From positions 668,606 through 732,605 of the forward strand of contig MKVB01000002.1 of NCBI GenBank assembly GCA_001899085.1: DNA of 64,000 nucleotides, read 5' to 3'. The notes beneath the pieces were generated by a model. The model was not told the origin of the DNA. It saw only the letters and a program-made list of their open reading frames with translations, and ran no database searches. Below, piece by piece: positions 6,428-27,230 of the stretch. The DNA comes from Devosia sp. 66-14 (lineage in GTDB: Bacteria > Pseudomonadota > Alphaproteobacteria > Rhizobiales > Devosiaceae). Position 1 is the first letter of the stretch. Every line of letters begins with the position of its first letter. A program made the translations under genes and the position numbers.

Positions 6428-6428
6428 G

Positions 6429-10960: not shown

Positions 10961-12256
10961 CTAGGCCTTCAGCGGCCCACCTGCTTCCTTCACCATCTCC
11001 ACCAGCCGCTTGAACACGTCGCCGCTCTGACGGATGCCGTCATGTTCGTATTCGTTGGTGACCCAGTGCTGGAGGTTCCCGACCGCGGCGGCGGTTTCGA
11101 GCGACAGGCCGGCATCGACATAGAGATCGTCGAAATAGACCACGGCGCTGACCGGCACCTGGTTGGCGGCAAGCCGCTGCAGGTCGTAGAGCGCGGAGTA
11201 GCTCCGTCGCGCCGCCAGCGCCTCGACGCCGGCGCGGAACGGGCGGAGCGAGCGGATTTCCTCGAACATCCAAGGATACATCATCTCGCCGGTGAACAGC
11301 AGCGGACGGGCCGACGGATCGAACTCGGGATGCTCGGCGCGGACCCGCTCGGCGGCCCAGTCGGTGGCGCCGGCGCCGTGACCGTAAATGCTCTCCTGCA
11401 GCGCGGCAAAGAGCGGGCCGCCGTCATAGCTGGTGAGGCTCATGACACTGGCGAGGAAGTGGTCGGATAGCCGGCCCGGGGCGGAGAAGGCTTCGTCGAT
11501 CAGCCAGTGGACGTTCTCGTGGCCGGGCGCCATGCCGAGATCAATGCCGATGGTCTGCAGCCGTTTGACGGTGAGCCGGTCGCCATCGGGCAGGCGGACC
11601 TCGTTGCCGTCGATGAAATCGGCGATAGCGGCGACGCGGGCGACGTCGTCGGGATAGCGCTTGTAATAGAGCCGGCTCTTTGCTGCGGCGCGCGGGTAGG
11701 TGCGGCGGTAGACCTCGTCGGCATCGGGCTTGAGGCTGGCGAGGCCGCCGGCGACATAGCAGGCAGCGAGCGCTTCGGGGTAACGGCTCAAATAGGTGAG
11801 GGTGAGGAAGCCGCCATAGCTCTGGCCCAGCGATTCCCAGCGCTTGCCGGCGAACAGGGTTTTGCGGGCGTGCTCGAAATCGTCGACGATGGAATCGGCG
11901 CGGAAATGGCCGAGATAGTCGGCGGCGGCCTCTGCATCGGAGAACTGCGCCATGGTGGCGGCTTCGATGCGGGTGGAGCGACCGGTGCCGCGCTGGTCGG
12001 GCAGGATCACCCGATGCGTCTTCAGCGCCTCGGCCAGCCAGGACGGGCTGCCCTTGGTCGGACGCGGTGACTTGCCGCCGGGGCCGCCCTGCAGGAACAC
12101 CAATAGCGGCAGGTCGTCATGGCGCTTGGTCGGATCGACCACCTCGCGCAGGAACAGCTCGATCGACTGACCCTCGGGCTTCTGCCAATCGAGCGGCACC
12201 GGCAGCAGGTGATCGCGGATCAGCATGCCGGGGATGATGTATTCGGCGACGGGCAT
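10961..12256 (-). CDS. Alpha/beta hydrolase, prolyl aminopeptidase-like (S33 family)
   Basis: 431-aa alpha/beta hydrolase resembling the long form of prolyl aminopeptidase (proline iminopeptidase), which removes N-terminal proline from peptides. Visible: oxyanion motif LQGGPGG (55-61), PDQRGTGRS (87-94), nucleophile S146 in GQSYGG, and acid/histidine candidates in FTGEMMYPWMF and HWVTNEYEHDG near the C-terminus. No signal peptide. ATG 12256 is preferred over GTG 12283 because GGAGAGG sits just upstream of it. It lies downstream of the second Dpp importer on the same strand, after a repeat element. Other S33 hydrolases share the motifs, so substrate is moderately certain at best. Confidence 0.8.
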   Translation of the reverse strand: MPVAEYIIPGMLIRDHLLPVPLDWQKPEGQSIELFLREVVDPTKRHDDLPLLVFLQGGPGGKSPRPTKGSPSWLAEALKTHRVILPDQRGTGRSTRIEAATMAQFSDAEAAADYLGHFRADSIVDDFEHARKTLFAGKRWESLGQSYGGFLTLTYLSRYPEALAACYVAGGLASLKPDADEVYRRTYPRAAAKSRLYYKRYPDDVARVAAIADFIDGNEVRLPDGDRLTVKRLQTIGIDLGMAPGHENVHWLIDEAFSAPGRLSDHFLASVMSLTSYDGGPLFAALQESIYGHGAGATDWAAERVRAEHPEFDPSARPLLFTGEMMYPWMFEEIRSLRPFRAGVEALAARRSYSALYDLQRLAANQVPVSAVVYFDDLYVDAGLSLETAAAVGNLQHWVTNEYEHDGIRQSGDVFKRLVEMVKEAGGPLKA

Positions 12257-12303
12257 TGAAGAACCTCTCCAGAGCTTTTTCACTGATGACCCGAGCCGGG
12301 CGC

Positions 12304-12395
12304 GATGTCATCCCTGCGAAAGCAGGGACCCATCTCGCAGCCTACGCCAGCGGATAGTTGGGTCCCTGCTTTCGCAGGGATGACAGCCGGTGGGT
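12304..12395. repeat. Intergenic repeat, CCCTGCGAAAGCAGGG family (copy 1)
   Basis: About 90-bp inverted repeat. Arm GATGTCATCCCTGCGAAAGC starts at 12304, and the mirror arm CTGCTTTCGCAGGGATGACA runs to 12385, followed by GCCGGTGGGT. The same element with the same flanking words occurs at 24934 and 51801. It separates dppB from the hydrolase gene in the minus-strand operon, so it could trim or stabilise that mRNA. Elements of this type are common between genes in alphaproteobacteria. Confidence 0.85.
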
Positions 12396-12432
12396 GTGTC
12401 GGGATCGTGCTCAACGACATTCCTGCACACCC

Positions 12433-13386
12433 CTACCGCACGCGCGGGTCGAGCAGCACATACGCGATGTCGACGATGATGTTGGCGACGACGATGAAGA
12501 GGCCGCCGAGCAGCACCACGCCGATGATGATCGGCCGGTCCTGGTTGGCCACCGCCTGCACCGCGAGGGCGCCGACGCCCTGCAGGCCATAGACCTGTTC
12601 GATGACGATGGCGCCGCCGAGCAGCAGCGCGATATCGGCGCCGAGCTGGGTGGCGAGCGGGGTGAGGGTAGCGCGCATGCCGTGCTTCCACACCACCTTT
12701 CGCTCCGAAAGCCCCTTGGCGCGGGCGGTGCGGATGTAATCCTCGCCCATCACTTCGAGCATCTGGCCGCGGGTGAGCCGGGCATAGACCGCGGCGGTGG
12801 TCAGCGCCAGCGTGGTCCAGGGGAGGATCAGGTGCCAGGCCCAGATCGCCGGGTTGGGCAGGAACGGCTTGAAGCCGCCGGCCGGGAACAGCATGAAGCC
12901 CGATTGCCGGGGCAGGAAATAGAACAGGTAGAGCGACATCATGCCGAGCACGAAGGTCGGAAAGCTGAGGCCGATGAGGATGAAGCCCTGGCCGAGCCGA
13001 TCGCGCACTCCGCCGGGATGGCGGGCCGACATGATGCCGATGGGGATGCCGACGGCAAGCCAGACCAGGACGCCACCCACCACCAGCGACAGGGTGGCGG
13101 GCAGGCGGTTGAAGATCAGCTTCGCGACCGGCTGCTGGTTGCGGTAGGAAAAGCCGAGATCGCCGGTCACGGCCTTGCCGAGAAAGCTCAGATATTGCTC
13201 GTGGATCGGCCGGTCGAGGCCGAGATTGGTGCGGATCTGGATCAGCTGCGTCTCGGTCGCCTTGTCGCCCGCCACCATGCGGGCCGGATCGCCCGGGGCG
13301 ACGAAGAACAGGAAGAACACGAACATGCTGAGCGTCAAAAGGATCAGCGCGCCGAACGCCACCCGCCCGAGGAGATAGCGGATCAT
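12433..13386 (-). CDS. ABC transporter permease, DppB type (second system)
   Basis: 317-aa permease starting MIRYLLGRVAFGALILLTLS (first membrane helix). The DppB hallmark LGLDRPIHEQYLSFLGKAVTGDLG follows, then a five-helix core with EAA loop TARAKGLSERKVVWKHGMRAT and the C-terminal DIAYVLLDPRVR ending typical of the family. ATG 13386 overlaps the dppC stop as ATGA, so the genes are translationally coupled. The frame extends far upstream of this ATG without stops, but that stretch lies antisense-like across dppC and does not match the family. Works with the DppC and fused ATPase encoded upstream. Confidence 0.93.
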   Translation of the reverse strand: MIRYLLGRVAFGALILLTLSMFVFFLFFVAPGDPARMVAGDKATETQLIQIRTNLGLDRPIHEQYLSFLGKAVTGDLGFSYRNQQPVAKLIFNRLPATLSLVVGGVLVWLAVGIPIGIMSARHPGGVRDRLGQGFILIGLSFPTFVLGMMSLYLFYFLPRQSGFMLFPAGGFKPFLPNPAIWAWHLILPWTTLALTTAAVYARLTRGQMLEVMGEDYIRTARAKGLSERKVVWKHGMRATLTPLATQLGADIALLLGGAIVIEQVYGLQGVGALAVQAVANQDRPIIIGVVLLGGLFIVVANIIVDIAYVLLDPRVR

Positions 13387-14318
13387 CTGGCTTTCCCCTT
13401 GGCAGCTTTCCTGACTGGCCGGCCGCGCGGGTCGAGCGCGTCGCGCAGCCCATCGCCGAGGATGTTGAAGGCGAGCGTGGTGAAGAGCAGCGCGAGGCCC
13501 GGGATCAGCACCAGCCAGGCCGCGACGAGGTAGAGCGAATTGCCGGCGGCATCGGCCAGCATGCCGCCCCAACTGGGGGCCGGCGGCACGATGCCCATGC
13601 CGAGAAAGCTCAGCGTCGCCTCGAAGACGATGGAGCCCGGGATCATCATGGTGGTGTAGACGATGATCGGCACGCTGAGATTGGGCAGGATGTCGATGAA
13701 CATGATCGACAGCGGCCCGGCGCCGAGCGAGCGGCTGGCTTCGACGAATTCCTGCCGGCGCAGCGACATCACCTGGCCGCGGATGACGCGGCCCATGGTG
13801 GTCCAGCTGAAAAAGACGATGACGCCGATACTGAGCGACAGGCTGGGGCCGAACACCGAGACCAGCGCCAGGGCGCAGAGCAGGAACGGCACGCTCATCA
13901 CCAGATCCATGGCGCGGCTCAGCACGGTATCGACCCAGCCGCCGAAATAGCCGGCGACCATGCCGACGGTGATGCCGATCAGGGCGGCAACCACGGCGGC
14001 GAGCACGCCGACAGTGAGCGAGACCTGTGCGCCATAGGCGAGGCGGACGAGGACATCGCGGCCGAGATGGTCGGTGCCGAACAGGAATTCGGCATTCGGC
14101 GCCACCGGCAGGCCCATCTCGGAGAGGCCGGTATCGCGGTACTGCTCGATGGCGGAGTGGCCGGTCAGCGCCGAAATCCACGGCGCCGAGAGGGCGAAGA
14201 TCACCACCAGCACGATGAAGACCAGCGCGGCGATGATGGCCGGGTCACGCCCGAGCCGGCGCAGCGTCAGCGCCAGCGAGCCGCGCTGCACGACGGGGAT
14301 GGCGGCTGGCGCGGTCAT
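13383..14318 (-). CDS. ABC transporter permease, DppC type (second system)
   Basis: 311-aa permease with N-terminal tail, first helix (PAIIAALVFIVLVVIFALSA), DppC signature FGTDHLGRDVLVR, GYFGGWVDTVLSRAMDLVMS, and EAA loop VEASRSLGAGPLSIMFIDILPN. The end is basic (RPVRKAAKGKAR). It overlaps both neighbours by 4 bp: the ATPase stop upstream and dppB downstream. Normal length and complete. Confidence 0.93.
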   Translation of the reverse strand: MTAPAAIPVVQRGSLALTLRRLGRDPAIIAALVFIVLVVIFALSAPWISALTGHSAIEQYRDTGLSEMGLPVAPNAEFLFGTDHLGRDVLVRLAYGAQVSLTVGVLAAVVAALIGITVGMVAGYFGGWVDTVLSRAMDLVMSVPFLLCALALVSVFGPSLSLSIGVIVFFSWTTMGRVIRGQVMSLRRQEFVEASRSLGAGPLSIMFIDILPNLSVPIIVYTTMMIPGSIVFEATLSFLGMGIVPPAPSWGGMLADAAGNSLYLVAAWLVLIPGLALLFTTLAFNILGDGLRDALDPRGRPVRKAAKGKAR

Positions 14319-16159
14319 GCGGCCTCCGGAACGTGCGAGGCGACCAGCGTGCGGCCGGCGGCAGGGTGGCGGGGCGGGGTGGCGACCGAGGCGGCGAGCA
14401 GGGTCTGGGTGTAGGGGTGCTGCGGCGTGCGGTAGAGCGTTTCGGCGTCGGCGAGCTCGACGATCTGGCCGGCCTGCATCACTGCGATGCGATCGCAGAC
14501 ATGCCGGACCACGGCGAGATCGTGCGAGATGAACAGGTAAGTGAGGTCGAGATCGCGCTGCAGCGAGCGCATCAGGTTCAGCACCTGCGCCTGGATCGAC
14601 ACATCGAGGGCCGAGACCGGCTCGTCATAGATGATCAGCGCGGGGTTTAGCGCCAGGGCCCGGGCGATGCCGATGCGCTGGCGCTGGCCGCCGGAGAATT
14701 CCGAGGGGAAGCGGTTGTAGTGCTCGGGGTTGAGCCCGACCAGTTCCATCAGCCGCTGCACTTCCCGCTTGCGTTCGGCGCCCGCGGCGAGGCCGTGGAT
14801 GCGGAACGGATCGCCGATGATGGCGCCGACACGGCGGCGCGGGTTGAGCGCGCCGAACGGGTTCTGGAACACCAGTTGCACCTCACGCCGCATCGCCTGC
14901 CAGGCGCGCGGGTCGAGCGAGCCGAGGTCGCGGCCGAGCAGCGCCACCTTGCCTGAGGTCATCGGGATCAGCCCGGCGAGGACGCGGGCAAAGGTGGATT
15001 TGCCGCAGCCGCTTTCGCCGACAAGGCCGAGGGTTTCGCCACGGCGGAGTTCGAGATCGATGCCCTTCAGCACCTCGAAGCCGGCGCCGGGGTTGAAGAG
15101 ACTTCCAGCGCCATAGGTGAGGCGGACGCCCTCGGCCTTGACCACGGTCTCGTCGGCGGCCGGGGCTTTGGCGACGGCCGCGACGCTGGCGGCGGCATCG
15201 GCGGGCGGGCCTTCGAGCCAGCACAGCGACTGCAAGCCATCGCTGAACACCCGCAGCGGCGGCGCCTCGCTGGTGCAGCGGGGCAGGGCGCTGGCGCAGC
15301 GCGGCGCGAACACGCATCCGGCCGGCGTTTCGAGCAGGCTGGGCGGCCGGCCAGGGATCGGCACCAGTTCGGCGCCGGCCTCGTAATTGGCGGGTGAGGA
15401 GGCGAGCAGCCCCGCGGTGTAGGGATGGGCCGGGGCGGCGAAGAGCGGGGCGCTTGGCCCCAGTTCCATGCGCCGGCCGGCATACATCACCATCACATGG
15501 TCGGCGATGCTGGAGAGGAGGCCGAGGTCGTGGGTGATCATCACCACGGTGGTGCCAAGTTCGCGCCGCATCTCGTCGAGCAGCGCGACGATCTGCGCCT
15601 GCACGGTGACATCGAGGGCGGTGGTGGGCTCGTCCGCGATGACCAGCGGCGGGTTGAGCACCAGCGCCATGGCGATCATCACGCGCTGCCGCATGCCGCC
15701 GGAGAACTGGTGCGGGAAACTATCGAAGCGGCGATCGGCTTCGGCGATACCGACGCGGGCGAGGAGGTCGACGGCACGGCGCCGCGCCACCGGCTTTTCC
15801 ACCTTCTCGTGGGCGTGGATCATCTCGGTGATCTGGCTGCCGACGGTGTAATAGGGGTGGAGGCTCGACATCGGATCCTGGAAGATCATGCCGATGCGCG
15901 AGCCGCGGATCGATTGCAGTTCGGCGGGCTTGAGGCCGAGCAGGTTGCGGCCCTCGAACAGCACTTCACCCGACACGATCGCATTGGGAAGCAGGCCGAG
16001 GATGGCCTGGGTGAGGACGCTCTTGCCCGAGCCGGACTCGCCGGCAATGCCGAACAGTTCGCCGGCTTCGAGCGCAAAGGAGACGTCGCGCACCGCGTGG
16101 ATCACACCGTCCTCGGTGGGGATATCGACGCTCAGATGCCGCGCTTCGAGAACTGCCAC
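14315..16159 (-). CDS. Fused dual ATP-binding protein (DppD-DppF type, second system)
   Basis: 614-aa protein with two ABC ATPase domains, like GsiA-type fusions. Domain 1: Walker A GESGSGKS, signature FSGGMRQR, Walker [12 protein letters not shown], ending with a cysteine-bearing oligopeptide extension (CVFAPRCASALPRC). Domain 2 (from about 345): Walker [10 protein letters not shown], signature FSGGQRQR, Walker B IIYDEPVSALD, H-loop ISHD. The second domain has only a short C-terminal extension without a cysteine cluster. One polypeptide supplies both nucleotide-binding sites for the DppBC pair. The gene is separated from the binding-protein gene by a repeat element, which may reduce its expression relative to the receptor. 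Confidence 0.93.
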   Translation of the reverse strand: MAVLEARHLSVDIPTEDGVIHAVRDVSFALEAGELFGIAGESGSGKSVLTQAILGLLPNAIVSGEVLFEGRNLLGLKPAELQSIRGSRIGMIFQDPMSSLHPYYTVGSQITEMIHAHEKVEKPVARRRAVDLLARVGIAEADRRFDSFPHQFSGGMRQRVMIAMALVLNPPLVIADEPTTALDVTVQAQIVALLDEMRRELGTTVVMITHDLGLLSSIADHVMVMYAGRRMELGPSAPLFAAPAHPYTAGLLASSPANYEAGAELVPIPGRPPSLLETPAGCVFAPRCASALPRCTSEAPPLRVFSDGLQSLCWLEGPPADAAASVAAVAKAPAADETVVKAEGVRLTYGAGSLFNPGAGFEVLKGIDLELRRGETLGLVGESGCGKSTFARVLAGLIPMTSGKVALLGRDLGSLDPRAWQAMRREVQLVFQNPFGALNPRRRVGAIIGDPFRIHGLAAGAERKREVQRLMELVGLNPEHYNRFPSEFSGGQRQRIGIARALALNPALIIYDEPVSALDVSIQAQVLNLMRSLQRDLDLTYLFISHDLAVVRHVCDRIAVMQAGQIVELADAETLYRTPQHPYTQTLLAASVATPPRHPAAGRTLVASHVPEAA

Positions 16160-16285
16160 GCAACTGCTCCAGACTGCGGACCGGCGAAGTGAGGGCGCTG
16201 GTCCAAGGCACGACTATTAAGTACCGGCCCCGAACCCTCGAGAAATCGCACATGGCGACAACGCGGCCGATGAGCCGGTGAGGAA

Positions 16286-16399
16286 AGAGTACCCCCACCC
16301 CTGTCCCCTCCCCGCAAGGGGGAGGGAGACCAAAACACTGGCGCCGGTGTGGGCGTCTCTTCCCCCCTTGCGGGGGAGGGACAGGGTGGGGGGTACTCT
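16286..16399. repeat. Intergenic palindromic repeat between receptor and ATPase genes
   Basis: Inverted repeat with arms 16286-16330 (AGAGTACCCCCACCCCTGTC onward) and 16355-16399 (ending GACAGGGTGGGGGGTACTCT). The right half of the 48 kb element (48168-48213) matches it closely. It sits between the binding-protein stop and the ATPase start on the minus strand, where a strong hairpin would act as an mRNA processing or attenuation point. No gene seen in 16160-16441. Confidence 0.8.
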
Positions 16400-16441
16400 G
16401 TGCGCACCGCGCAATCCCCGCGCCGGCTCGTCAGCCTCAGC

Positions 16442-18199
16442 CTATTGCTGCAGCCAGACGTTGGTCCAGTCGCCTTGCACGCCGATCGAGTAGGGCTGGA
16501 AGTTCTGCACGGCGGCGCCGTGGTAGAGCACGATCAGGTTGGCGATCAGCGGCACCACCGGGGCGTCGGCCATGACCAGCTCGTCGACCTGGGCCCAGAG
16601 CGCGCCGACTTCTTCGGGCGTCGTGGCGTTGATCGCCTGCTGGGCCAGCTCGTTGGCCTTGTCGTTGTTGTAGTCGGTGTAGTTGTAGGTCTGGTGCGTG
16701 CCGTCATAGCTGAACTGCGGCTGGAACACCGAGCGCGCCGAGCCGCCGGCCCAATCCGGAGTCCAGCCGACCGGGGCGATATCCCAGGTGCCTTCCTGGG
16801 TGTTCACAGGGTTGGTCATGAACTTCGAGTAGTAGTCGGCGGGGGCCACCGGGGTCAGCTCGAGGGTGATGCCGGCCTTGGCCATCGAGGCCTGGATGGT
16901 CTGCGCCACCGCCGGCTCGTTGCCCTTGTTGCGGAACGGCATTTTCAGCGTGATGCCGTTGGGGAAGCCGGCTTCGGCGAGCAGCGCCTTGGCCTTTTCC
17001 GGGTCGCCCTTGGCGTCAGCCGAGGGGTAGAGGTCGAACTCGTGGTAGCCGAGCACCCCGAGGCCGAAAATGCCGTTCACCGGCTTGGCGATCGACGGCC
17101 CGCCCATCTGCTGGACGATGGCGGCCTTGTCGACGGCGTAGTTCAGCGCCTGGCGGACCTTCAGGTCCTTGAGCGCGCCATTGTTGTTGCCCGAGACGGT
17201 GTTGATGAAGATGAAGTTGGTGTTGCCCGACGACACCGTCATCAGCTTGTCGTCGCCCTGGGCGGTCAGCATCGACAGGATGGCCGGCGGGATGGTGACG
17301 TCATAGGTCATGTCGCCGTCGCCCGATTGCAGCTGCTGCATGATGGCGTCGACGGTGAGCCCGAAGGTGATGTCGATCTGGTCGACATAGGCCTTGCGCA
17401 GCGGATCGCTGTCGGCGGTCCAGGCCGGGTTGCGCACCAGCTGCAGCGAGGAATCCGGGGTGTAGGCACCGGGGGTGTAGGGGCCGCTGGCGATGAAATT
17501 GCTGCGGTAATCCGGGCCATCCGGCATGTAGTCGAGCACTTCGACGGGTGCCGGAGCAGAGGTGGCGAGCGACAACATGTAGATGAAGTCGCCGGCGCGC
17601 TGCGTCAGCCGGATCACCACGGTTTCGTCATCCGGCGTCTCGATGCCGGTGATGTCGTTGCCCTCGATATAGGCCTTCATCGCCTCGACGGTCGGCTCGA
17701 CCTTACTGAAGCCATCGCAGAACTCGGCCATGCCGGCGACGAGGCTCGAGTAGTAGGTCAGCGCCGCCGAGCCGAGCGCCGGGTTGCACATGCGCTTGAA
17801 GCCGCGTTCGAGATCGGCCGAGGTGATCTGGCGGGCGCCCGACGGGGCGTTCCACTGCGCGCCCTGGCGGAGCTTGAAGGTGTAGGTGAGCCCGTCATCG
17901 GTGGGCTGCGGCACTTCGGTGGCGAGATCGCCCTTGGGGGTGATGCGGACCGTTTCGTCGGTCGAGGCCTCGTAGGAGATCAGCTGGCGCGATACGGCGC
18001 GCAGGAAATTGTTGGTGGTGACCAGGGCCGCCGAGGTGGGGTCGAAATGGTCGAGATCCTCGGTGCCGAGGATGCGCAGCGTGCCGCCCGGCTGGGCGTC
18101 CTGCGCCAGGCTCGGTACGGTCGACAGGGCGGTCGCGACGAGGCCGGCCAGCGCCAGCCGCGGCAGCAATCCGCCTCGTTTCAGGTTGGTATGCGCCAT
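16442..18199 (-). CDS. ABC transporter solute-binding protein, family 5 (second system)
   Basis: 585-aa periplasmic receptor. A signal peptide covers roughly residues 1-33 (basic NLKRGG, hydrophobic LALAGLVATALSTVPSLAQ). The mature part begins PGGTLRILGTEDLDHFDPTSA, typical of SBP_bac_5 proteins. It keeps the family features LATEVPQPTDDGLTYTFKLRQGAQW and ALNYAVDKAAIVQQMGG. ATG 18199 has AAGGAGGG upstream. The frame stays open a long way further upstream but runs back across the divergent enzyme genes and lacks a signal peptide there. The neighbouring prolyl-aminopeptidase and aminopeptidase-P genes suggest a peptide ligand; this is inference from context. Confidence 0.93.
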   Translation of the reverse strand: MAHTNLKRGGLLPRLALAGLVATALSTVPSLAQDAQPGGTLRILGTEDLDHFDPTSAALVTTNNFLRAVSRQLISYEASTDETVRITPKGDLATEVPQPTDDGLTYTFKLRQGAQWNAPSGARQITSADLERGFKRMCNPALGSAALTYYSSLVAGMAEFCDGFSKVEPTVEAMKAYIEGNDITGIETPDDETVVIRLTQRAGDFIYMLSLATSAPAPVEVLDYMPDGPDYRSNFIASGPYTPGAYTPDSSLQLVRNPAWTADSDPLRKAYVDQIDITFGLTVDAIMQQLQSGDGDMTYDVTIPPAILSMLTAQGDDKLMTVSSGNTNFIFINTVSGNNNGALKDLKVRQALNYAVDKAAIVQQMGGPSIAKPVNGIFGLGVLGYHEFDLYPSADAKGDPEKAKALLAEAGFPNGITLKMPFRNKGNEPAVAQTIQASMAKAGITLELTPVAPADYYSKFMTNPVNTQEGTWDIAPVGWTPDWAGGSARSVFQPQFSYDGTHQTYNYTDYNNDKANELAQQAINATTPEEVGALWAQVDELVMADAPVVPLIANLIVLYHGAAVQNFQPYSIGVQGDWTNVWLQQ

Positions 18200-18289
18200 G
18201 GGTTCCCTCCTTGATGGGCGAGCGAGTGCAGAGGGCAGCCGCTCCCGTAACTGCAATAGTCGACAGCCTGTACGCAGATTGTCAATAGT

Positions 18290-18301
18290 AATGTCGACAA
18301 C
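18290..18301. promoter_or_regulatory. Candidate operator, TGTCGACA palindrome
   Basis: AATGTCGACAAC in the 201-bp divergent promoter region between the binding-protein gene (start 18199, minus) and the DHDPS-family gene (start 18401, plus). The core TGTCGACA is a perfect palindrome and recurs inside a longer palindrome at 49422-49437. The form TGT-NN-ACA fits FadR-type GntR regulators, three of which are encoded nearby. A related half (ATTGTCAATAGT) lies at 18279-18290. Confidence 0.5.
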
Positions 18302-18400
18302 TTGCCGACAGTTACTTTTGCGCCTAAGACACTGGCAAAGTCGGACGCCCGGATGTGTTCGAACGATGGCGGCCGTTGCCCGCGAGACAAGGACAAGACA

Positions 18401-19315
18401 ATGCGAAAGAGCGATTTCCGCGGCGTGTTCCCGGCGATCACCACCAAGATGACGAGCGATCAGGAGGTCGATCTCGCCGCCGTCAAAGCAGATGTCGCCT
18501 ATCAGATCGCCGCCGGGGTCGACGGCGTCATCGTCTGCGGTTCGCTCGGCGAGGCCAGCAGCCTGACGCGCGAGGAAAAGCTCGCCATCGCCCGGGTGGC
18601 CATCGAGGCCGCGGCAGGGCGGAAGCCGATTCTGCTCACCATCGCCGAGGACTCGACCCGGGCCGGCGCAGCGCTCGCCGCCGAAGCCGAAAAGCTCGGC
18701 ATCGAGGGACTGATGGTGCTGCCGGCGATGCGCTACCTCGCCGACGATCGCGAAGTGGTGGCGCATTACCGGGCCATCGCCGCTGCCTCCAACCTGCCGA
18801 TCATCATCTACAACAACCCGATCGCCTATGGCATCGACGTGAGCAAGGAGATGCTCCTCGAAATGGCCGACGAGCCGAAATTCGTCGCCATCAAGGAATC
18901 GACCGGCGACACCCGCCGCATCAACGAGACGCTGGCCGCCCTGGGCGATCGCTACCAGCTGCTCACCGGGGTCGACGACCTGGCGCTCGAAAGCCTGATC
19001 CTGGGCTGCAGCGGTTGGATCGCCGGGCTGGTCGTGGCCTTCCCGCGTGAAACCGTCGCCATCTACCGGCTGGTCGAGGAGGGGCGGATCCCCGAAGCGC
19101 TGGAAATCTACCGCTGGTTCCTGCCACTGCTGCACATGGATATCGGGCCGAAATTCGTCCAGAACATCAAGCTGGTGGAGACGATCGTGCGCGGCACCTC
19201 GCCGGTCACCCGCGCGCCGCGCCTCGCCCTGGTCGGGGCCGAGGAGGCGCAGGTTCGCGCCGTCACCGAGGCCGGGCTGAAGTCCCGTCCGGACCTTGCC
19301 AAATATGGCTTCTGA
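18401..19315 (+). CDS. DHDPS-family lyase/dehydratase/deaminase (paralogue A)
   Basis: 304-aa class I (Schiff-base) TIM-barrel enzyme of the dihydrodipicolinate synthase family. Visible: substrate loop CGSLGEASS in place of the usual GTTGE, active-site Y137 in IIYNNPIAYG and Schiff-base K165 in VAIKESTGD. The opening DFRGVFPAITTKMT and the YNNPIAYG motif resemble rhizobial proteins proposed to deaminate 1-pyrroline-4-hydroxy-2-carboxylate in hydroxyproline breakdown; keto-deoxy sugar-acid dehydratase is an alternative. True DapA is unlikely because the GTTGE threonines are absent. ATG 18401. Its stop lies within the start region of the aminopeptidase gene, so the two are co-expressed. Confidence 0.87.
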   Translation: MRKSDFRGVFPAITTKMTSDQEVDLAAVKADVAYQIAAGVDGVIVCGSLGEASSLTREEKLAIARVAIEAAAGRKPILLTIAEDSTRAGAALAAEAEKLGIEGLMVLPAMRYLADDREVVAHYRAIAAASNLPIIIYNNPIAYGIDVSKEMLLEMADEPKFVAIKESTGDTRRINETLAALGDRYQLLTGVDDLALESLILGCSGWIAGLVVAFPRETVAIYRLVEEGRIPEALEIYRWFLPLLHMDIGPKFVQNIKLVETIVRGTSPVTRAPRLALVGAEEAQVRAVTEAGLKSRPDLAKYGF

Positions 19316-21095
19316 GATGAACCGGCTCGCCGCCCTGAGGGCCGAACTCGCCGGGCTCGGCATAGACGGGGTGATCGTGCCGCGCTTCGACGCGCACCAG
19401 GGCGAATATTGCGCCCCGCATGACGAGCGGCTGCGCTACCTCACGCGCTTCACCGGTTCGGCCGGCATCGCGCTGGTGACCGCCGACAGCGCGGTGATCT
19501 TCGTCGATGGCCGCTACCAGGTGCAGGTGCGCCAGGAAGTCGATCTCGACGCATTCGAGATCTCGCATTTTTACGACTTTCCGCTGGAACGCTGGCTCGG
19601 CGACAAGCTGCCCCGCAACCAACGGATCGGCTTCAACCCGATGCTGATTCCGTCAGATCTGCATGAGCGGCTGAAAGCGGCGATGCAGAAGGCCGACGGC
19701 GAACTGGTGGCGCTCGAGGCCGATCCGATCGATGCGATCTGGCCGGATCAGCCGGCGCCGCCGACCGGACGGATCCAGCACTTTGCCAATGCCGGCGAAG
19801 CGGCGCTCGACAAGCGGCGCCGCATCGGGGCACGGCTCACCGAGCTCGGCGCGGATTTCCTGGTCGAGACGCAACCCGACAATATCGCCTGGCTGCTCAA
19901 CGTGCGGGGCAGCGATGTCCAGTACACGCCGTTGCCGCAGTCGTTCCTGCTGCTCGACCGGAGCGGCGAGACCGAGTGGTTCGTCGATGAGCGCAAGCTT
20001 CCCAACGATCGCGAAGCCTATGAGCTCGAAGCGGTGACGACGCGGTCGCCGGCCGACCTGCTCGGGCGCATCGCGGCGCGCTCGGGCGGCAAGCGGGCGC
20101 TGGTCGATCCGCGCTTTGCCTCGGTGGCGGCAGCGCTGGCCGTGCAGGGGGCCGGCGGCACGGTATTGTCGGAGACGAGCCCGATCACCATCGCCAAGGC
20201 GATCAAGAACAGTACCGAACTCGATGGTTTCCGCTCGTCGCATGTCAGTGACGGCGTGGCGCTCACCGAGTTCCTGAGCTGGCTGCACGAGCATGTGGCG
20301 GCGCGCGAAATGGCCGGCGACCCGATCACCGAGCTCGAAGCCGAGGACAAGCTGCTGGCGTTCCGGGCGCGCGGCGAAGGCTTCGTCGAGCCGAGCTTCC
20401 GCTCGATCTCGGCTTCGGCGGCCAATGCCGCGATGTGCCATTATGCTTCGAGCGAAGCGACCAATGCGCCGCTCACCATCAGCGGCGTCTACCTGATCGA
20501 TTCCGGCGGGCAGTATCTGAGCGGCACCACCGACGTCACCCGCACCACCGCCTTCGCCCCGGTGTCCGTTGAGGTCCGCCGCACCTATACCGCGGTGCTC
20601 AAGGGGTTCGTGGCGCTGATGACGGCGCAGTTCCCGGTGACGGCGCGCGGCCACCATCTCGATGCGCTGGCGCGGCGGCCGCTGTGGGACCTGGGGCTCG
20701 ATTACGATCATGGCACCGGGCACGGCGTCGGGCACTTCCTCTCGGTGCACGAGCACCCGCAGCGCTTCGGCAAGGTGGTGAACAATTACGAGTTCGCGCC
20801 CGGCGTGATCATGACGATCGAGCCCGGCTATTACCGCGAAGGCGAGTTCGGGCTCAGGGTCGAGAACCAGGTGGAGACGGTCGCCGCAGCGCCGGGCTTC
20901 CTGCGCTTCGAGACGCTGACCCTGGCGCCGATCGACCTGGCACTGGCCGATGTGAGTGCGCTGACCCGGGACGAGGTGGCGTGGATCGACGGCTACCACG
21001 CGCGGGTGCGCGCGGCGCTGGTGGAGAAGCTGTCGGCTACGGCACGCGTGTGGCTTGAGCAGATGACGGCGCCGATCGGCTCCCCTCCCCCTTGA
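19305..21095 (+). CDS. M24B aminopeptidase P family protein (Xaa-Pro aminopeptidase)
   Basis: 596-aa metallopeptidase with the three-domain layout of long aminopeptidase P: two creatinase-like N-terminal domains and a C-terminal pita-bread domain. Dinuclear metal ligands are visible in YLIDSGGQY (Asp), TTDVTRTTAF (Asp), GTGHGVGHF (His), MTIEPGYY (Glu) and RVENQVE (Glu). It releases an N-terminal residue preceding proline. No signal peptide, so it acts on imported peptides. ATG 19305 overlaps the DHDPS gene; ATG 19317 just after that stop is an equally possible start. The final residues and stop codon lie inside a palindromic repeat (21079-21178), so the tail SPPP comes from the repeat. Confidence 0.93.
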   Translation: MASEMNRLAALRAELAGLGIDGVIVPRFDAHQGEYCAPHDERLRYLTRFTGSAGIALVTADSAVIFVDGRYQVQVRQEVDLDAFEISHFYDFPLERWLGDKLPRNQRIGFNPMLIPSDLHERLKAAMQKADGELVALEADPIDAIWPDQPAPPTGRIQHFANAGEAALDKRRRIGARLTELGADFLVETQPDNIAWLLNVRGSDVQYTPLPQSFLLLDRSGETEWFVDERKLPNDREAYELEAVTTRSPADLLGRIAARSGGKRALVDPRFASVAAALAVQGAGGTVLSETSPITIAKAIKNSTELDGFRSSHVSDGVALTEFLSWLHEHVAAREMAGDPITELEAEDKLLAFRARGEGFVEPSFRSISASAANAAMCHYASSEATNAPLTISGVYLIDSGGQYLSGTTDVTRTTAFAPVSVEVRRTYTAVLKGFVALMTAQFPVTARGHHLDALARRPLWDLGLDYDHGTGHGVGHFLSVHEHPQRFGKVVNNYEFAPGVIMTIEPGYYREGEFGLRVENQVETVAAAPGFLRFETLTLAPIDLALADVSALTRDEVAWIDGYHARVRAALVEKLSATARVWLEQMTAPIGSPPP

Positions 21096-21178
21096 GGGGA
21101 GGGGATGGGGGTGGGGGTCCATCGGTGATCACAGAACCACCCCCACCCCCCGCCCCTCCCCTCAAGGGGGAGGGGAGC
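21079..21178. repeat. Palindromic repeat overlapping the aminopeptidase stop codon
   Basis: Inverted repeat with arms 21079-21118 (GCTCCCCTCCCCCTTGAGGG onward) and 21137-21178 (ending CTCAAGGGGGAGGGGAGC). The TGA of the M24 peptidase at 21093-21095 is within the left arm. It lies between the peptidase and GH127 genes, both on the plus strand. Confidence 0.8.
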
Positions 21179-21231
21179 GACCGCGGATAATTCGATCATT
21201 CGTGAAGTAACCGTCCAAGAAAGCCCACCCC

Positions 21232-23151
21232 ATGTCCGCCCCCGCCAAGCCCAGCCTCGATCGCTACACCCCAATCGACCACGCCAAGGTCGATTTCAGC
21301 GGCGGGTTCTGGGAGAGCTGGAGCGAGACGGTGCGCAAGGTCACCGTGCCGACGCAGCATCAGCGGCTCGACGAGGAGGGGTTCCTCGAGGTGCTCAACT
21401 TCCACCTGCCGCCGGCGCCGCTGGTTCGCCCGATCCAGCCGAGCGGGCTCTCGATGCAGCACTTCTTCGACAGCGATTTCGGCAAGTGGATCGAAGCGGC
21501 CAGCTATACGCTGAAGGCCCACCCCAACCCGGCGCTGGAAGAAAAGATCGACGCGATCGTCGAGCAGCTGGCCAAGGGGCAATTGGCGGATGGCTATCTC
21601 AACTCGTGGTTCATCCGGCGCGAGCCGGACAAGCGCTGGACGAACCTCCGCGACCTGCACGAAATGTATTCGATGGGGCACCTGCTCGAGGGCGCGGTCG
21701 CCTATTTCGAGGCGACCGGCAAGCGCCGCTTCCTCGAGGTGATGATCCGCGCGGTCGACCACATCATCGATACCTTCGGGTCCGAGCCGGGGAAACTGCG
21801 CGGCTACGACGCGCATGAGGAAATCGAGATCGCGCTGATCAAGCTCCATGGCGTCACCAACGATCCGCGCCATCTCGACCTCGCGAGCTTCTTCGTCAAC
21901 GAGCGCGGGCAGCAGCCCGCCTATTACGACGAGGAAGCGCGGCGACGCGGCAAGGACCCCAAGGACTATATCTTCAAGGATTACTCCTACAGCCAGGCGC
22001 ACATGCCGGTGCGCGAGCAGACCCAGGTGGTGGGCCATGCGGTGCGCGCCATGTATCTGTTTTCGGCGATGGCGGATGTGGCGGCGGCCACCGGCGACCT
22101 CTCGCTGTTCGCCGCCTGCGACACGCTGTTCGACAACCTCACCGGGCGGCAGCTCTATGTCACCGGCGGGCTGGGGCCGGCGCATGCCAATGAGGGGTTC
22201 ACCCGGGAATACGACCTGCCCAACGTCACCGCCTATGCCGAGACCTGCGCCGCGGTGGCGCTGGCGTTCTGGGGCCATCGCATGGCGCAGATCGAGCTCG
22301 ACGGGCGCTTCACCGACCATGTCGAACTGGTGCTGTTCAACGGCGCGCTGTCGGGGATTTCGCGCGACGGCGAGCACTATTTCTACGAGAACGTGCTGGA
22401 GAGCCACGGCGACAACCGGCGCTGGAAATGGCACTACTGCCCGTGCTGCCCTACCAATATCGCGCGGCTGATCGCGTCGCTCGGCAGCTATTTCTACACC
22501 ACCAAGCCGGACGAGCTGGCGGTGCACCTCTATGGCGCCAATACCGGCGAGGCGGTGCTGGGCGAGACGGTGGTCAGGCTCAGCCAGGAAACGCGCTACC
22601 CGTGGGATGGCGATATCCGGCTCGGCATCGCTCCGGTGACGCCGAAGCGCTTCGCCCTGCGGCTCCGCGTGCCGGGCTGGTGCCGGGACGCGAAGTTCAG
22701 CGTCAACGGGGCCTTCGTGCCAGCCGAAATCCATAAGGGTTATGCAACGATCGAGCGCGAGTGGCGAGCCGGCGACGAGGTGCGGATCGGCTTCGCCATG
22801 CCGGTCGAGCGGCTCTATGCCAACCCGGAGGTGAGCGAAGATGCCGGGCGGGTGGCGCTGAAGCGCGGTCCGGTGGTCTATTGCCTCGAGGAGGTCGATA
22901 ACGGTTTTGCGCCGCAGCGGCTGCGGCTGGCGCCGGGAGCAGGCATCGAGACCTCGTATGATCCGGGACTGCTGGGTGGCGCGGTGACGCTGAGCGGCAG
23001 CGCGGTGAAGGCCAGCGACGCCGGCTGGGGCGGGGCGCTTTACCGCACGGCGCCGTCGGCGCTGGAACCGGTGCGCTTCAAGGCGATCCCTTACCACCTA
23101 TGGGCCAATCGCGCGCCGGGCGGCATGCTGGTATGGCTGCTGGAAGCCTAG
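21232..23151 (+). CDS. GH127 family protein, beta-L-arabinofuranosidase-like
   Basis: 639-aa glycoside hydrolase resembling HypBA1 of Bifidobacterium, which releases L-arabinose from beta-L-arabinofuranosyl chains attached to hydroxyproline in plant extensins. The unusual cysteine chemistry is preserved: E337 and C339 in AYAETCAAV, and C403, C405 and C406 in HYCPCCPTN, matching the zinc-holding glutamate/cysteines and the cysteine nucleophile of the family. The (alpha/alpha)6 barrel is followed by beta-sandwich domains from about 490. No signal peptide, so it works on imported substrate. ATG 21232. Other GH127 members act on different L-sugar linkages, so the exact bond is inferred. The preceding proline-specific peptidase makes a Hyp-arabinoside plausible. 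Confidence 0.88.
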   Translation: MSAPAKPSLDRYTPIDHAKVDFSGGFWESWSETVRKVTVPTQHQRLDEEGFLEVLNFHLPPAPLVRPIQPSGLSMQHFFDSDFGKWIEAASYTLKAHPNPALEEKIDAIVEQLAKGQLADGYLNSWFIRREPDKRWTNLRDLHEMYSMGHLLEGAVAYFEATGKRRFLEVMIRAVDHIIDTFGSEPGKLRGYDAHEEIEIALIKLHGVTNDPRHLDLASFFVNERGQQPAYYDEEARRRGKDPKDYIFKDYSYSQAHMPVREQTQVVGHAVRAMYLFSAMADVAAATGDLSLFAACDTLFDNLTGRQLYVTGGLGPAHANEGFTREYDLPNVTAYAETCAAVALAFWGHRMAQIELDGRFTDHVELVLFNGALSGISRDGEHYFYENVLESHGDNRRWKWHYCPCCPTNIARLIASLGSYFYTTKPDELAVHLYGANTGEAVLGETVVRLSQETRYPWDGDIRLGIAPVTPKRFALRLRVPGWCRDAKFSVNGAFVPAEIHKGYATIEREWRAGDEVRIGFAMPVERLYANPEVSEDAGRVALKRGPVVYCLEEVDNGFAPQRLRLAPGAGIETSYDPGLLGGAVTLSGSAVKASDAGWGGALYRTAPSALEPVRFKAIPYHLWANRAPGGMLVWLLEA

Positions 23152-23248: not shown

Positions 23249-24004
23249 GTGGCTGCAGCGCGCGGGGCGACAAGGATCAAACCGGCCGCCGGCAAGGCGG
23301 CGACGCCCGCCGGCGACGAGCCGGTGCGGGTGCGCGGGCAAGGGGCGCAGACCGTCTATGAGAAGCTGCGCCAGTCGATCCTCGACCTGACGCTGGAGCC
23401 GGGCAGCCCCCTCGACGAGGTGGGGCTCTCCGAGCAGTTCGAGATGTCGCGCACGCCGATCCGCGAGGCGCTGGTGCGGCTCTCGGCCGAGGGACTGGTG
23501 ACGACGCTGCCCAACCGCAGCACGATCGTCTCGTCGATCGATTTCGTCCGCCTGCCGATCTATTTCGAGGCGCTGACGCTGATGTACCGGGTGACGACGC
23601 GCGGCGCCGCGGTGCACCGGCGCGACAGCGACATGCTGGTGATCCGCACGCTGCAGGCCGCCTATGCCGATGCCGTGGCGCAGCGCGACGCACTCAAGAT
23701 GATCCAGTCGAACCGCGATTTCCACGTGGCGATCGCCACTGCCGGCGGCAACAGCTATTTCACCGGGCTGTTCACCCGGCTGCTCGACGAAGGCCGCCGC
23801 ATCCTCAGGCTCTACTACCAGAGCTTCGACGACACCCTGCCGCGCCAGTATGTCGACGAGCACGAAGCAATGGTGGCGGCGGTTGCCGCGGGGGATGCCG
23901 AGCTCGCCGACAAGCTGGCCGCCGAACACGCCGCCCAGATCGTGCGGCAGATCCAGAGCTACATCGCGCGCGATACGACGTCGCATATCAGCCTGGCGTC
24001 GTAG
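23249..24004 (+). CDS. GntR-family transcriptional regulator, FadR subfamily (1)
   Basis: 251-aa regulator. After a 30-residue basic, alanine-rich tail comes a winged helix-turn-helix (about 33-97; VYEKLRQSILDLTLEPGSPL, SRTPIREALVRLSAEGLV) and a helical FCD ligand-binding domain with histidines in NRDFHVAI, DEHEAMVAA and EHAAQIV that typically hold a metal. GTG 23249 has AGGAG upstream. It follows the GH127 gene on the same strand and precedes a second GntR gene. Probably controls the DHDPS/peptidase/GH127 genes, but no operator can be assigned to it with certainty. Confidence 0.92.
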   Translation: MAAARGATRIKPAAGKAATPAGDEPVRVRGQGAQTVYEKLRQSILDLTLEPGSPLDEVGLSEQFEMSRTPIREALVRLSAEGLVTTLPNRSTIVSSIDFVRLPIYFEALTLMYRVTTRGAAVHRRDSDMLVIRTLQAAYADAVAQRDALKMIQSNRDFHVAIATAGGNSYFTGLFTRLLDEGRRILRLYYQSFDDTLPRQYVDEHEAMVAAVAAGDAELADKLAAEHAAQIVRQIQSYIARDTTSHISLAS

Positions 24005-25169: not shown

Positions 25170-25181
25170 ATTGCTGACAAT
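25170..25181. promoter_or_regulatory. Candidate operator, ATTGCTGACAAT (= ATTGTCAGCAAT on the other strand)
   Basis: Inverted repeat ATTG-NNNN-CAAT, extended to GATTGCTGACAATC at 25169-25182, centred about 49 bp before the ATG of the UxaA-family gene at 25225. Exact copies of the 12-mer occur at 47958 and 49483. The symmetric arms suggest binding by a dimeric regulator such as a GntR protein. Confidence 0.6.
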
Positions 25182-25224
25182 CGACGATTTGTGTGATTGT
25201 CTCGTCGCTCGAGGAGAGACGGTC

Positions 25225-26757
25225 ATGGCTGGTCAGGTTGCTGCCGTGTTGCAGCTGAAGCCCGGGGACGAGGTGGGGATTGCGTTGCGCGACCTCCATG
25301 CCGGCGAAGCGCTGGCGCCGTTTGCCGGCGTCGCGGCCGGCGAGATTCCGTTCGGGCACAAGGTGGCGCTGGTGGCGCTGCGGCCCGGCGATGCGGTGCA
25401 TCGGTTCGGCCAGCCGATCGGGCTGGCGCGGCAGGCGATTGCCGCAGGGGCGCATGTGCACCTCCATAATCTGGGGTTCGAGACCTCGATGGCCGGCCAT
25501 GCCATCGGCACCCGGCTTTCCAACGCGCCGCCGGCGGGCAGGGCGGAGATCCCGAGTTTTGACGGCATCGTGCGCGCCGATGGGCGGGTGGCGACGCGCA
25601 ACTATGTGGGCGTCCTCACCTCGGTGAACTGCTCGTCGCTGGTGGCGCGGATGATCGCCGACCATTTCCGCGATCCGGCGCGGCTCGCGCCTTATCCCGG
25701 CGTCGATGGCGTCGTTGCGCTGACGCATAAATCGGGCTGTAGCGTCGCCGACGGCTCGATGTCGATGGCGATGCTGCGGCGGACGCTCGGCGGCTATGCC
25801 CGGCACCCGAATTTCGCCGGGGTGCTGCTGGTGGGGCTGGGCTGCGAGGACAACCAGATCGACCAGCTGATCGACGAGCAGCAGCTCGAACTGGGCGACG
25901 AGCTCAACAAGCTGGTGATGCAGGAAACCGGCGGCACGCGGACCTCGATCGGCCGCGGCATCGAACTGGTCGAGGCGATGCTGGAGCGGGCGGCGCAGGC
26001 AAAGCGCGAGCCGGTGCCGGTGAGCGAGATCATCGTCGGGCTGCAATGCGGCGGCTCGGACAGTTTCTCCGGTATTTCCGCCAACCCGGCGCTGGGCGCC
26101 GCGGTCGACCGGCTGGTGGCGGCGGGCGGCACCGCCATCCTCGCCGAAACGCCGGAAATCTATGGCGCGGAGAACCTGCTGCTGGAGCGCGCGGTGACGC
26201 GCGAGGTGGGCGAAAAGCTGCTCGGCCTCCTCGACTGGTGGGAGGATTACACCCGCAACGAGCCGCAGGGTTTCGACAACAACCCTTCGCCCGGCAACAA
26301 GGCGGGCGGGCTCACCACCATTCTCGAAAAATCGCTCGGCGCGGTGGCCAAGGGCGGCACCACCAACCTCACCGATGTCATCGGCTACGCGCAGCCGCTG
26401 GGCACCAGGGGCCTCGTCTTCATGGACTCCCCCGGGTTCGACCCGATGTCGGCGACCGGGCAGGTGGCGAGCGGCGCCAACCTCATCGCCTTCACCACCG
26501 GACGCGGCTCGTGTTTCGGCTGCCGGCCGTCACCCTCGATCAAGCTCGCCACCAACACCGCGATGTTCCGGCGCATGGAAGAGGACATGGACGTCAACTG
26601 CGGCGCCATCCTCGATGACGAGGCGACCATCGACGAGATGGGCGAGCTGGTGTTCCGCGAGATGATCGCCACCGCCTCGGGCAAGCCGACCAAGAGCGAG
26701 CTGCTGGGCTATGGCGAGGACGAGTTCGCGCCCTGGCATGTCAATGCGTGGCTGTGA
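25225..26757 (+). CDS. UxaA-family sugar-acid dehydratase (altronate/galactarate dehydratase type)
   Basis: 510-aa hydro-lyase: N-terminal SAF domain (about 5-90, with FGHKVALVAL and AGAHVHLHNL) joined to the large catalytic domain. Family motifs include HKSGCSVADG, GLGCEDNQ, GLQCGGSDSFSG, AETPEIYGAENLL, NPSPGNKAGG and FTTGRGSCFGCRPSPSIKLA. These enzymes dehydrate altronate or galactarate-type acids to keto-deoxy acids using iron. The C-terminal part (DVNCGAILDDEATIDEMGEL) leans towards galactarate dehydratase, the total length fits both, so substrate is open. ATG 25225 has GAGGAGAG upstream; earlier starts lack one. Products of this reaction are typical substrates of DHDPS-family enzymes, three of which are in the window. 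Confidence 0.88.
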   Translation: MAGQVAAVLQLKPGDEVGIALRDLHAGEALAPFAGVAAGEIPFGHKVALVALRPGDAVHRFGQPIGLARQAIAAGAHVHLHNLGFETSMAGHAIGTRLSNAPPAGRAEIPSFDGIVRADGRVATRNYVGVLTSVNCSSLVARMIADHFRDPARLAPYPGVDGVVALTHKSGCSVADGSMSMAMLRRTLGGYARHPNFAGVLLVGLGCEDNQIDQLIDEQQLELGDELNKLVMQETGGTRTSIGRGIELVEAMLERAAQAKREPVPVSEIIVGLQCGGSDSFSGISANPALGAAVDRLVAAGGTAILAETPEIYGAENLLLERAVTREVGEKLLGLLDWWEDYTRNEPQGFDNNPSPGNKAGGLTTILEKSLGAVAKGGTTNLTDVIGYAQPLGTRGLVFMDSPGFDPMSATGQVASGANLIAFTTGRGSCFGCRPSPSIKLATNTAMFRRMEEDMDVNCGAILDDEATIDEMGELVFREMIATASGKPTKSELLGYGEDEFAPWHVNAWL

Positions 26758-26820
26758 GGGGCGGGCGGATGGCTTATCGGAGCATGAGTACCGGCTCGGT
26801 CCCCGTTGCCCCCACATCCA

Positions 26821-27227: not shown

Positions 27228-27230
27228 CCG

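What the first reader, a model, noticed from the sequence alone, without database searches (positions are those of the whole stretch)
10961..23151. Possible pathway for arabinosylated hydroxyproline-rich plant peptides
Seen: a Dpp-type importer (12433-18199), a prolyl-aminopeptidase-like hydrolase (10961), an aminopeptidase P (19305), a DHDPS-family enzyme with the YNNPIAYG motif (18401) and a GH127 enzyme with the full Cys/Glu zinc site (21232), with the intracellular enzymes lacking signal peptides. Known: the GH127 founder HypBA1 removes beta-L-arabinofuranose from hydroxyproline of extensins; aminopeptidase P and prolyl aminopeptidase act at proline; a DHDPS-family deaminase takes part in bacterial hydroxyproline breakdown. 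Inference: the locus imports short arabinosylated Hyp/Pro peptides from plant cell walls, strips arabinose, cleaves at proline and feeds both products into alpha-ketoglutarate semialdehyde. I know of no described intracellular system combining these.
Basis: partly seen in the sequence, partly recalled or inferred. Interest (0 to 1): 0.82.

Follow-up and report, generated by a model that had tools for sequence, protein, structure and literature searches.

The report
Arabinosylated hydroxyproline peptide uptake locus
A soil bacterium carries a gene cluster that probably imports fragments of plant cell-wall protein, strips off their arabinose and burns the unusual amino acid hydroxyproline, and much the same genes sit together in many rhizobia and their relatives.

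Summary
Comparative evidence supports most of the interpretation. GH127 proteins of the window's clade (60-93% identical; Devosia, Rhizobium, Martelella, Kaistia, Cohaesibacter and others) have a proline peptidase within about 10 kb in 49 of 78 loci and a hydroxyproline gene in 25 of 78; a sister GH127 group (47-54%) from the Devosia family has 2 and 1 of 86. In Kaistia granuli the order is GH127-DHDPS-HypO-like dehydrogenase-hydroxyproline epimerase, beside a divergent HypR-like gene. The window's GntR at 23249 is 62% identical to the GntR of the S. meliloti hydroxyproline cluster. A palindrome, TTTGTCGACAAA, recurs before importer, peptidase, deaminase and GH127 genes; the window has a weaker version. 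Open points: the genome also has a S. meliloti-type deaminase, so the window's DHDPS is a second one or does something else; uptake of still-glycosylated peptides, the sugar linkage and the fate of arabinose are inferred; 65 of 78 clade members have a sugar ABC importer nearby. I read the locus as a new variant of bacterial hydroxyproline utilisation with intracellular de-arabinosylation.

The parts
10961..12283 (-). S33 alpha/beta hydrolase, prolyl-aminopeptidase-like (PAP)
   Evidence: PAP found in 35 of 78 GH127 clade-1 loci
12433..13386 (-). DppB-type permease
13383..14318 (-). DppC-type permease
14315..16159 (-). fused two-domain DppD/DppF-type ATPase
16442..18199 (-). SBP_bac_5 peptide-binding protein; signal peptide by eye
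   Evidence: best solved relative 2wok, clavulanic acid biosynthesis oligopeptide-binding protein 2
18290..18301 (.). variant of the HypR-type palindrome, AATGTCGACAAC (core TGTCGACA intact, 3 mismatches to TTTGTCGACAAA), between the divergent importer and enzyme runs
   Evidence: same letters in the two closest relatives L034 and L035
18401..19315 (+). DHDPS-family enzyme, probable second-type 1-pyrroline-4-hydroxy-2-carboxylate deaminase
19305..21095 (+). M24 aminopeptidase P (XPNPEP1 type)
21232..23151 (+). GH127, probable intracellular beta-L-arabinofuranosidase on Hyp-linked arabinose
23249..24004 (+). FadR-type GntR regulator, HypR-like (62% to the GntR in the S. meliloti hyp cluster)

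Best explanation
The locus is a HypR-type-controlled unit for using hydroxyproline-rich plant peptides. Step 1 (inferred): the Dpp-type importer brings short Pro/Hyp peptides, at least some arabinosylated, into the cytoplasm. Step 2 (active-site residues and conserved association shown, linkage inferred): the cytoplasmic GH127 removes beta-L-arabinofuranose from hydroxyproline. Step 3 (family shown, specificity inferred): aminopeptidase P and the PAP-like hydrolase open Xaa-Pro/Hyp and Pro/Hyp-Xaa bonds. Step 4 (genes shown, activities inferred): free hydroxyproline is epimerised and oxidised by enzymes encoded elsewhere in this genome (C5, about 347.7-350.0 kb) and beside the DHDPS gene in relatives; the DHDPS-family enzyme, or the S. 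meliloti-type HypD at C2:882.8k, converts the pyrroline to alpha-ketoglutarate semialdehyde. Step 5 (inferred from position, homology and palindrome): the HypR-like GntR represses the unit until hydroxyproline is present. How the arabinose is used is unknown.
For: (1) Association: clade 1 peptidase 49, Hyp gene 25 (23 if the HypR-like regulator is not counted), Dpp 15, any 55 of 78 loci; control group 2, 1, 3 and 3 of 86; outgroup 0 of 7. Restricted to the window's own bacterial family, any linked gene stands in 10 of 11 clade-1 loci (listing; L101 is the miss) against 3 of 86 controls. 76 of the 78 clade-1 loci gave sequences for the tree, and with the window they form one group of 77, support 0.99, midpoint-rooted. 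(2) Clustering of all ORFs in 78 clade-1 and 47 control loci: after GH127, a LacI-type regulator and the sugar ABC genes, the next eight most frequent families are PAP, M24, HypR-like, SBP, DppDF, long M24, DppC and DHDPS, each in at most 2 of 47 controls. (3) Several gene orders keep the link: Devosia PAP-Dpp|DHDPS-APP-GH127-GntR; Devosia sp. FKR38 (L103) Dpp|HypO-HypR|APP-GH127-Ser/Cys racemase relative; R. johnstonii 3841 sugar ABC-GH127, DHDPS, GntR, PAP, Xaa-Pro peptidase; Kaistia granuli HypR|GH127-DHDPS-HypO-HypE; Martelella, Cohaesibacter, Marinibacterium. (4) Orthologues of the window's DHDPS: of 14 loci read, 10 have an epimerase-family neighbour, 9 a HypO-like dehydrogenase, 12 a HypR-like regulator. 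Nine of the 15 genomes with the gene have no S. meliloti-type HypD at E 1e-60; two of the nine are only 77% and 85% complete. (5) Palindrome: in S. meliloti one exact copy before hypD and one with one mismatch before hypR; 35 sites with at most one mismatch in 27 of 78 clade-1 loci against 1 of 86 controls; 32 of 35 lie within 300 bp upstream of a listed gene, GH127 itself in three Kaistia genomes. (6) Of 13 clade-1 loci without nearby sugar SBP or permease genes, 12 carry Hyp or Pro-peptide genes.
Against: The genome has a relative of S. meliloti HypD (73%) elsewhere, so the window's DHDPS is not needed for the known path, and no close relative of S. meliloti HypH is found (best 31%). 23 of 78 clade-1 loci show none of the linked genes in the stretch read (18 of 71 where at least 8 kb is held on both sides). 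65 of 78 have a sugar ABC importer nearby, so GH127's natural substrate may enter as a small glycoside and not as a peptide. The window's palindrome is a 3-mismatch variant; the strict motif occurs 8 times in the genome and five of the eight sites lie inside long ORFs. Many of the 78 loci are Rhizobium and not independent, while the 86 controls are all from one bacterial family. No enzyme of this subfamily was assayed, and GH127 relatives also act on other sugars (recalled; the aceric acid hydrolase model scores 389 against a cut-off of 950).
Confidence: 0.72

Rival explanations
1. Two neighbouring jobs: a Pro/Hyp-peptide utilisation operon (importer, peptidases, DHDPS, HypR-like regulator) that imports unglycosylated peptides, with GH127 acting on free Hyp-arabinosides or arabino-oligosaccharides brought in by other sugar ABC systems.
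For: 65 of 78 clade-1 GH127 genes have sugar ABC permease or binding-protein genes nearby, and that sugar SBP family is in 62 of 78 against 0 of 47 controls. PAP-Dpp|DHDPS loci occur without GH127 in the 20 kb read (L038, L040, L047).
Against: In Devosia, GH127 lies in the same co-directional run as aminopeptidase P, 136 bp apart in the window and about 5-65 bp apart by tblastn ends in L089 and L087. Loci lacking the sugar ABC genes are the ones most tied to Dpp or Hyp genes (12 of 13).
Confidence: 0.4
2. The DHDPS-family enzyme is an L-2-keto-3-deoxyarabonate dehydratase that handles the arabinose released by GH127, not a hydroxyproline-pathway deaminase.
For: It sits in the GH127 run; the genome has a S. 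meliloti-type HypD elsewhere; the enzyme family and product are shared (recalled).
Against: Its orthologues lie beside hydroxyproline epimerase, HypO-like dehydrogenase and HypR-like regulator with no GH127 in the 20 kb read (L042-L046), and a related DHDPS lies between GH127 and HypO-HypE in Kaistia granuli.
Confidence: 0.2
3. GH127 acts on another plant beta-L-arabinofuranoside or related L-sugar, and its neighbours reflect a general plant-wall utilisation island.
For: The nearest solved relative is 4qjy, a GH127 whose organism is recalled as Geobacillus, and not HypBA1; other glycan genes lie near some members (R. johnstonii alpha-L-rhamnosidase and alpha-L-fucosidase annotations).
Against: The sister GH127 group in the window's family lacks the Pro/Hyp neighbours (any: 3 of 86), and the HypR-type palindrome stands directly before GH127 in three Kaistia genomes.
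Confidence: 0.15

Closest known systems
S. meliloti hyp cluster on pSymB (HypR, HypD, HypH, HypMNPQ, HypO, HypRE; gene names from passages of PMC5343134 and PMC6608401 and from recall; the record carries no annotation and I assigned the ORFs by homology and order)
   Same: GntR 62% identical, same palindrome, epimerase and dehydrogenase families, DHDPS-family deaminase
   Different: Reported to import hydroxyproline itself (PMC5343134 passage); no peptidase or GH127 query matched in the 45 kb read; its HypD is a different DHDPS subfamily (32%)
Bifidobacterium longum system for beta-L-arabino-oligosaccharides of hydroxyproline-rich glycoproteins, with HypBA1 (PMC7263609 and PMC10850190, abstract starts in a search listing only)
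   Same: GH127 with the same catalytic and zinc residues
   Different: Described as degradation and import of arabino-oligosaccharides; no prolyl peptidases or Hyp catabolism in the text seen
HypR regulons with collagenases (Shewanella, PMC5343134; Streptomyces, PMC6608401; passages read)
   Same: Hydroxyproline regulon extended upstream to a protein-degrading step
   Different: Secreted collagenase instead of peptide importer, cytoplasmic prolyl peptidases and arabinosidase

Membership tests
GH127 beta-L-arabinofuranosidase | Pfam GH127 catalytic, middle and C-terminal domains over cut-off | tested here: met
   331.6, 82.6 and 81.9 bits
GH127 beta-L-arabinofuranosidase | Cys nucleophile, Glu acid/base and Cys3-Glu zinc site of HypBA1 (roles recalled) | tested here: met
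   Glu321, Glu337, Cys339, Cys405, Cys406 aligned to 3wkw
GH127 beta-L-arabinofuranosidase | hydrolysis of Hyp-beta-L-Araf | not testable with these tools
   needs an assay
Aceric acid hydrolase (GH127) | NF049879 score over cut-off | tested here: not met
   389 bits against 950
Pyr4H2C deaminase (HypD/LhpC) | DHDPS family with Schiff-base lysine | tested here: met
   PF00701 161 bits; IKE lysine aligned with the FKE lysine of S. meliloti HypD
Pyr4H2C deaminase (HypD/LhpC) | orthology to S. meliloti HypD | tested here: not met
   32% identity; a separate 73% relative exists
Pyr4H2C deaminase (HypD/LhpC) | gene context with epimerase and D-Hyp dehydrogenase | tested here: met
   in relatives: epimerase-family neighbour 10 of 14, HypO-like 9 of 14; Kaistia run. 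Not in the window itself
HypR regulator | close similarity to the S. meliloti GntR of the hyp cluster | tested here: met
   62% over 231 aa
HypR regulator | binds an operator shared with hyp genes | tested here: inconclusive
   shared palindrome found, window site is a 3-mismatch variant; binding not testable
Aminopeptidase P (M24) | creatinase N, N2, M24 and C-terminal domains | tested here: met
   all four over cut-off; full-length match to 3ctz
Prolyl aminopeptidase (S33) | NCBIfam prolyl aminopeptidase cut-offs | tested here: not met
   35 bits against 260 and 168; alpha/beta hydrolase family member only

The most novel reading that the evidence does not exclude
A widespread alphaproteobacterial regulon for intracellular breakdown of arabinosylated hydroxyproline glycopeptides: a Dpp-type importer that carries O-glycosylated plant peptides, a cytoplasmic de-arabinosylating GH127 clade defined by this role, and a second type of hydroxyproline-pathway deaminase, all under HypR. 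In rhizobia the same system could also consume arabinosylated plant signalling peptides such as CLE hormones (a guess; nothing here bears on it).
Probability: 0.3. Interest if true: 0.85.

Novelty: new variant of a known kind. Interest (0 to 1): 0.68.

Why it matters
Hydroxyproline-rich wall proteins are a carbon and nitrogen source at plant surfaces, and I found no description of the steps between arabinosylated peptide and hydroxyproline catabolism in these bacteria in the open-licence library searched. The locus gives a testable substrate for a GH127 clade, a candidate glycopeptide importer, a possible second deaminase type and a concrete operator candidate for HypR.

Tried and rejected
Window DHDPS as the genome's only deaminase: rejected after one search found a 73% HypD relative. 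Aceric acid hydrolase: rejected by score. The strict palindrome as a regulon finder in this genome: not useful, five of eight sites lie inside long ORFs (L239, L240, L242, L243, L245). Of the other three, C5:238833 lies about 300 bp before another Dpp-like binding protein (it also overlaps two ORFs of 129-149 aa), C2:885241 about 125 bp before an unidentified 410-aa ORF, and C6:841808 about 200 bp before a 199-aa ORF. The site before the S. meliloti-type hypD of this genome has two mismatches. The palindrome was found in 32 hand-picked regions that include S. meliloti, so S. meliloti and most Devosia loci are not independent tests; the Rhizobium, Kaistia, Martelella and Brucella endophytica loci were not in that set. 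Ser/Cys proline-racemase neighbours, first labelled 'T3LHyp dehydratase' after their best NCBIfam model, score below its cut-off (375-380 against 550 in the three searched) and carry a Ser/Cys dyad in 5 of 5 checked, a dyad that PMC4113996 reports for its cluster 9, one of those it assigns to 4-hydroxyproline epimerase (passages). No structure prediction or fold search was run. The arabinose pathway was not examined.
Full report
What is there. In the plus run the first two genes overlap by 11 bases and the next gaps are 136 and 97 bases. The GH127 active-site and zinc residues align with HypBA1, and the aminopeptidase P aligns nearly end to end with human Xaa-Pro aminopeptidase 1.

Is GH127 tied to proline and hydroxyproline? 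I took the 80 best relatives of the window's GH127 in named genomes (528 matching stretches, the tool keeps 80) and loci from the 136 genomes of the Devosia family. At 59.8-93% identity, 73 of the 80 plus 5 further Devosia-family loci make 78 'clade 1' loci. The 7 of the 80 at 50-54% serve as an outgroup; at least two of them (L174, L175) have the contig lengths of control loci L195 and L194. The control is all 86 full-length Devosia-family matches at 47-54%. A clade-1 fragment in G094 (411 bases at a contig end) was not read. In a 131-sequence tree with 47 of the controls, 76 of the 78 clade-1 loci and the window form one group, support 0.99 (L155 and L091 gave no sequence long enough). In the stretch read (up to about 10 kb each side, less at contig ends), clade 1 has a proline peptidase in 49, a hydroxyproline gene in 25 (23 without counting the HypR-like regulator), a Dpp component in 15 and any of these in 55 of 78; control 2, 1, 3 and 3 of 86; outgroup 0 of 7. 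Fisher's test gives 1e-18 for the peptidases, but it ignores relatedness. Two of the three control exceptions, L202 and L208, are genomes in which a second GH127 lies close to the same PAP-Dpp locus; the third, L281, has relatives of this Dpp system. Within the Devosia family alone, 10 of 11 clade-1 loci have a linked gene (listing). A clustering of 2050 ORFs from 78 clade-1 and 47 control loci gave the same families without preselection. Twenty-three of 78 loci show none of the linked genes, and many of the 78 are Rhizobium. The strength lies in the different gene orders across Devosia, Rhizobium, Brucella endophytica, Martelella, Cohaesibacter, Kaistia and Marinibacterium.

What the DHDPS does. 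Orthologues at 79-91% were found in 14 further genomes of 136 (G062 as two pieces). In the 14 loci read (L034-L048 without the 5-kb L039), 6 carry 4-hydroxyproline epimerase and 4 others a proline-racemase relative (10 of 14), 9 a HypO-like dehydrogenase and 12 a HypR-like regulator. The epimerase of L044 scores 563 bits against a cut-off of 376 in the NCBIfam 4-hydroxyproline epimerase model. The 5 proline-racemase relatives of this type that I checked have a Ser/Cys dyad, which PMC4113996 reports for its cluster 9, assigned there to 4-hydroxyproline epimerase (passages). The S. meliloti-type HypD occurs in 45 of 136 family genomes at E 1e-60. Of the 15 genomes with the window-type DHDPS, 6 have both and 9 only the window type. 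The window genome has both, with an epimerase and a HypO-like dehydrogenase (39%) at C5. I therefore read the window enzyme as a second-type deaminase with a probability of about 0.7; an arabinonate-pathway dehydratase is the main rival.

Regulation. The GntR at 23249 is 62% identical to the GntR beside hypD on S. meliloti pSymB. That record has no annotation in the tool, so I assigned its genes by homology and recalled order. A palindrome search in 32 hand-picked intergenic regions gave the half-site TTTGTC, mirrored with at most one mismatch, in 18, against at most 2 for any half-site of that length and spacing in 20 block shuffles. In S. meliloti TTTGTCGACAAA stands exactly between hypR and hypD and, with one mismatch, before hypR. 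Of the 78 clade-1 loci, 27 hold 35 sites with at most one mismatch, against 1 site in 86 control loci over about the same number of bases. Of the 35, 32 lie within 300 bp upstream of an importer, peptidase, HypD, HypR, sugar-ABC or GH127 gene. In three Kaistia genomes the site lies 125-138 bp before GH127. In the window the SBP-DHDPS gap holds AATGTCGACAAC at 18290, the same in the two closest relatives. The looser WWTGTCGACAW is expected 0.03 times per window, but it was also found at 49424 and 53795, and the strict motif in the whole genome is mostly inside ORFs. HypR regulons are described in PMC5343134 (passages), whose motif logo was not visible to me, so the operator itself may already be known.

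Transport. Sixty-five of 78 clade-1 loci have a carbohydrate ABC permease or binding-protein gene in the stretch read; of the 13 that lack them, 12 have Hyp or Pro-peptide genes. In the window no such sugar importer adjoins GH127. This fits import of glycosylated peptides by the Dpp system, but it equally allows import of small Hyp-arabinosides by an unlinked sugar transporter.

Prior work. Full-text searches for GH127/hydroxyproline/extensin, hydroxyproline/Pyr4H2C deaminase, hydroxyproline/oligopeptide/arabinofuranosidase/transporter/rhizobi, hydroxyproline/meliloti/hypD/epimerase, keto-deoxyarabinonate dehydratase/hydroxyproline, beta-L-arabinofuranosidase/hydroxyproline/Rhizobium and hydroxyproline/extensin/catabolism/rhizobia/prolyl aminopeptidase, four of five terms showed no title or abstract start describing this combination. 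Only open-licence papers are held; one of the S. meliloti papers was looked up and is not held.

Verdict. The locus is a new variant of a known kind, hydroxyproline utilisation, extended upstream by peptide import, prolyl peptidases and an intracellular GH127.

Noticed in passing
window 539-7829: A second peptide-type ABC importer followed by two tandem DUF6282 proteins and an allantoinase-like amidohydrolase.
   Followed up: no
window 40515-46993 and 49744-57905: Two further Dpp-like importers with SBP_bac_5 proteins, making about four peptide-type importers in 64 kb.
   Followed up: no
window 36568-37566 and 39384-40337: Two more DHDPS-family genes; the second is 45% identical to the one in the finding and 48% to that of the R. 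johnstonii GH127 locus.
   Followed up: partly
window 25171-31722: Galactarate/altronate dehydratase-like gene followed by hydantoinase A and B and an SDR.
   Followed up: no
window 46824-49434: Two adjacent BNR-repeat proteins between importers.
   Followed up: no
window 49424 and 53795: Two more WWTGTCGACAW palindromes, one about 310 bp before the SBP gene at 49744.
   Followed up: partly
L085:5649-11798 and other clade-1 loci: A sugar-binding protein family near clade-1 GH127 in 62 of 78 loci and in 0 of 47 controls; a candidate Hyp-arabinoside importer.
   Followed up: partly
L202, L208: A different GH127 (49-50%) lies near the PAP-Dpp locus in two Devosia-family genomes.
   Followed up: no
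L281: Relatives (61-73%) of this Dpp importer about 5 kb from a sister-group GH127, without peptidase or Hyp genes in the stretch.
   Followed up: no
L081 (G000:C5:341000-360900): Second hydroxyproline cluster of this genome: GntR, ABC importer, HypO-like, HypE, cis-3-Hyp dehydratase-like, Ser/Thr proline-racemase relative, Ldh_2.
   Followed up: partly
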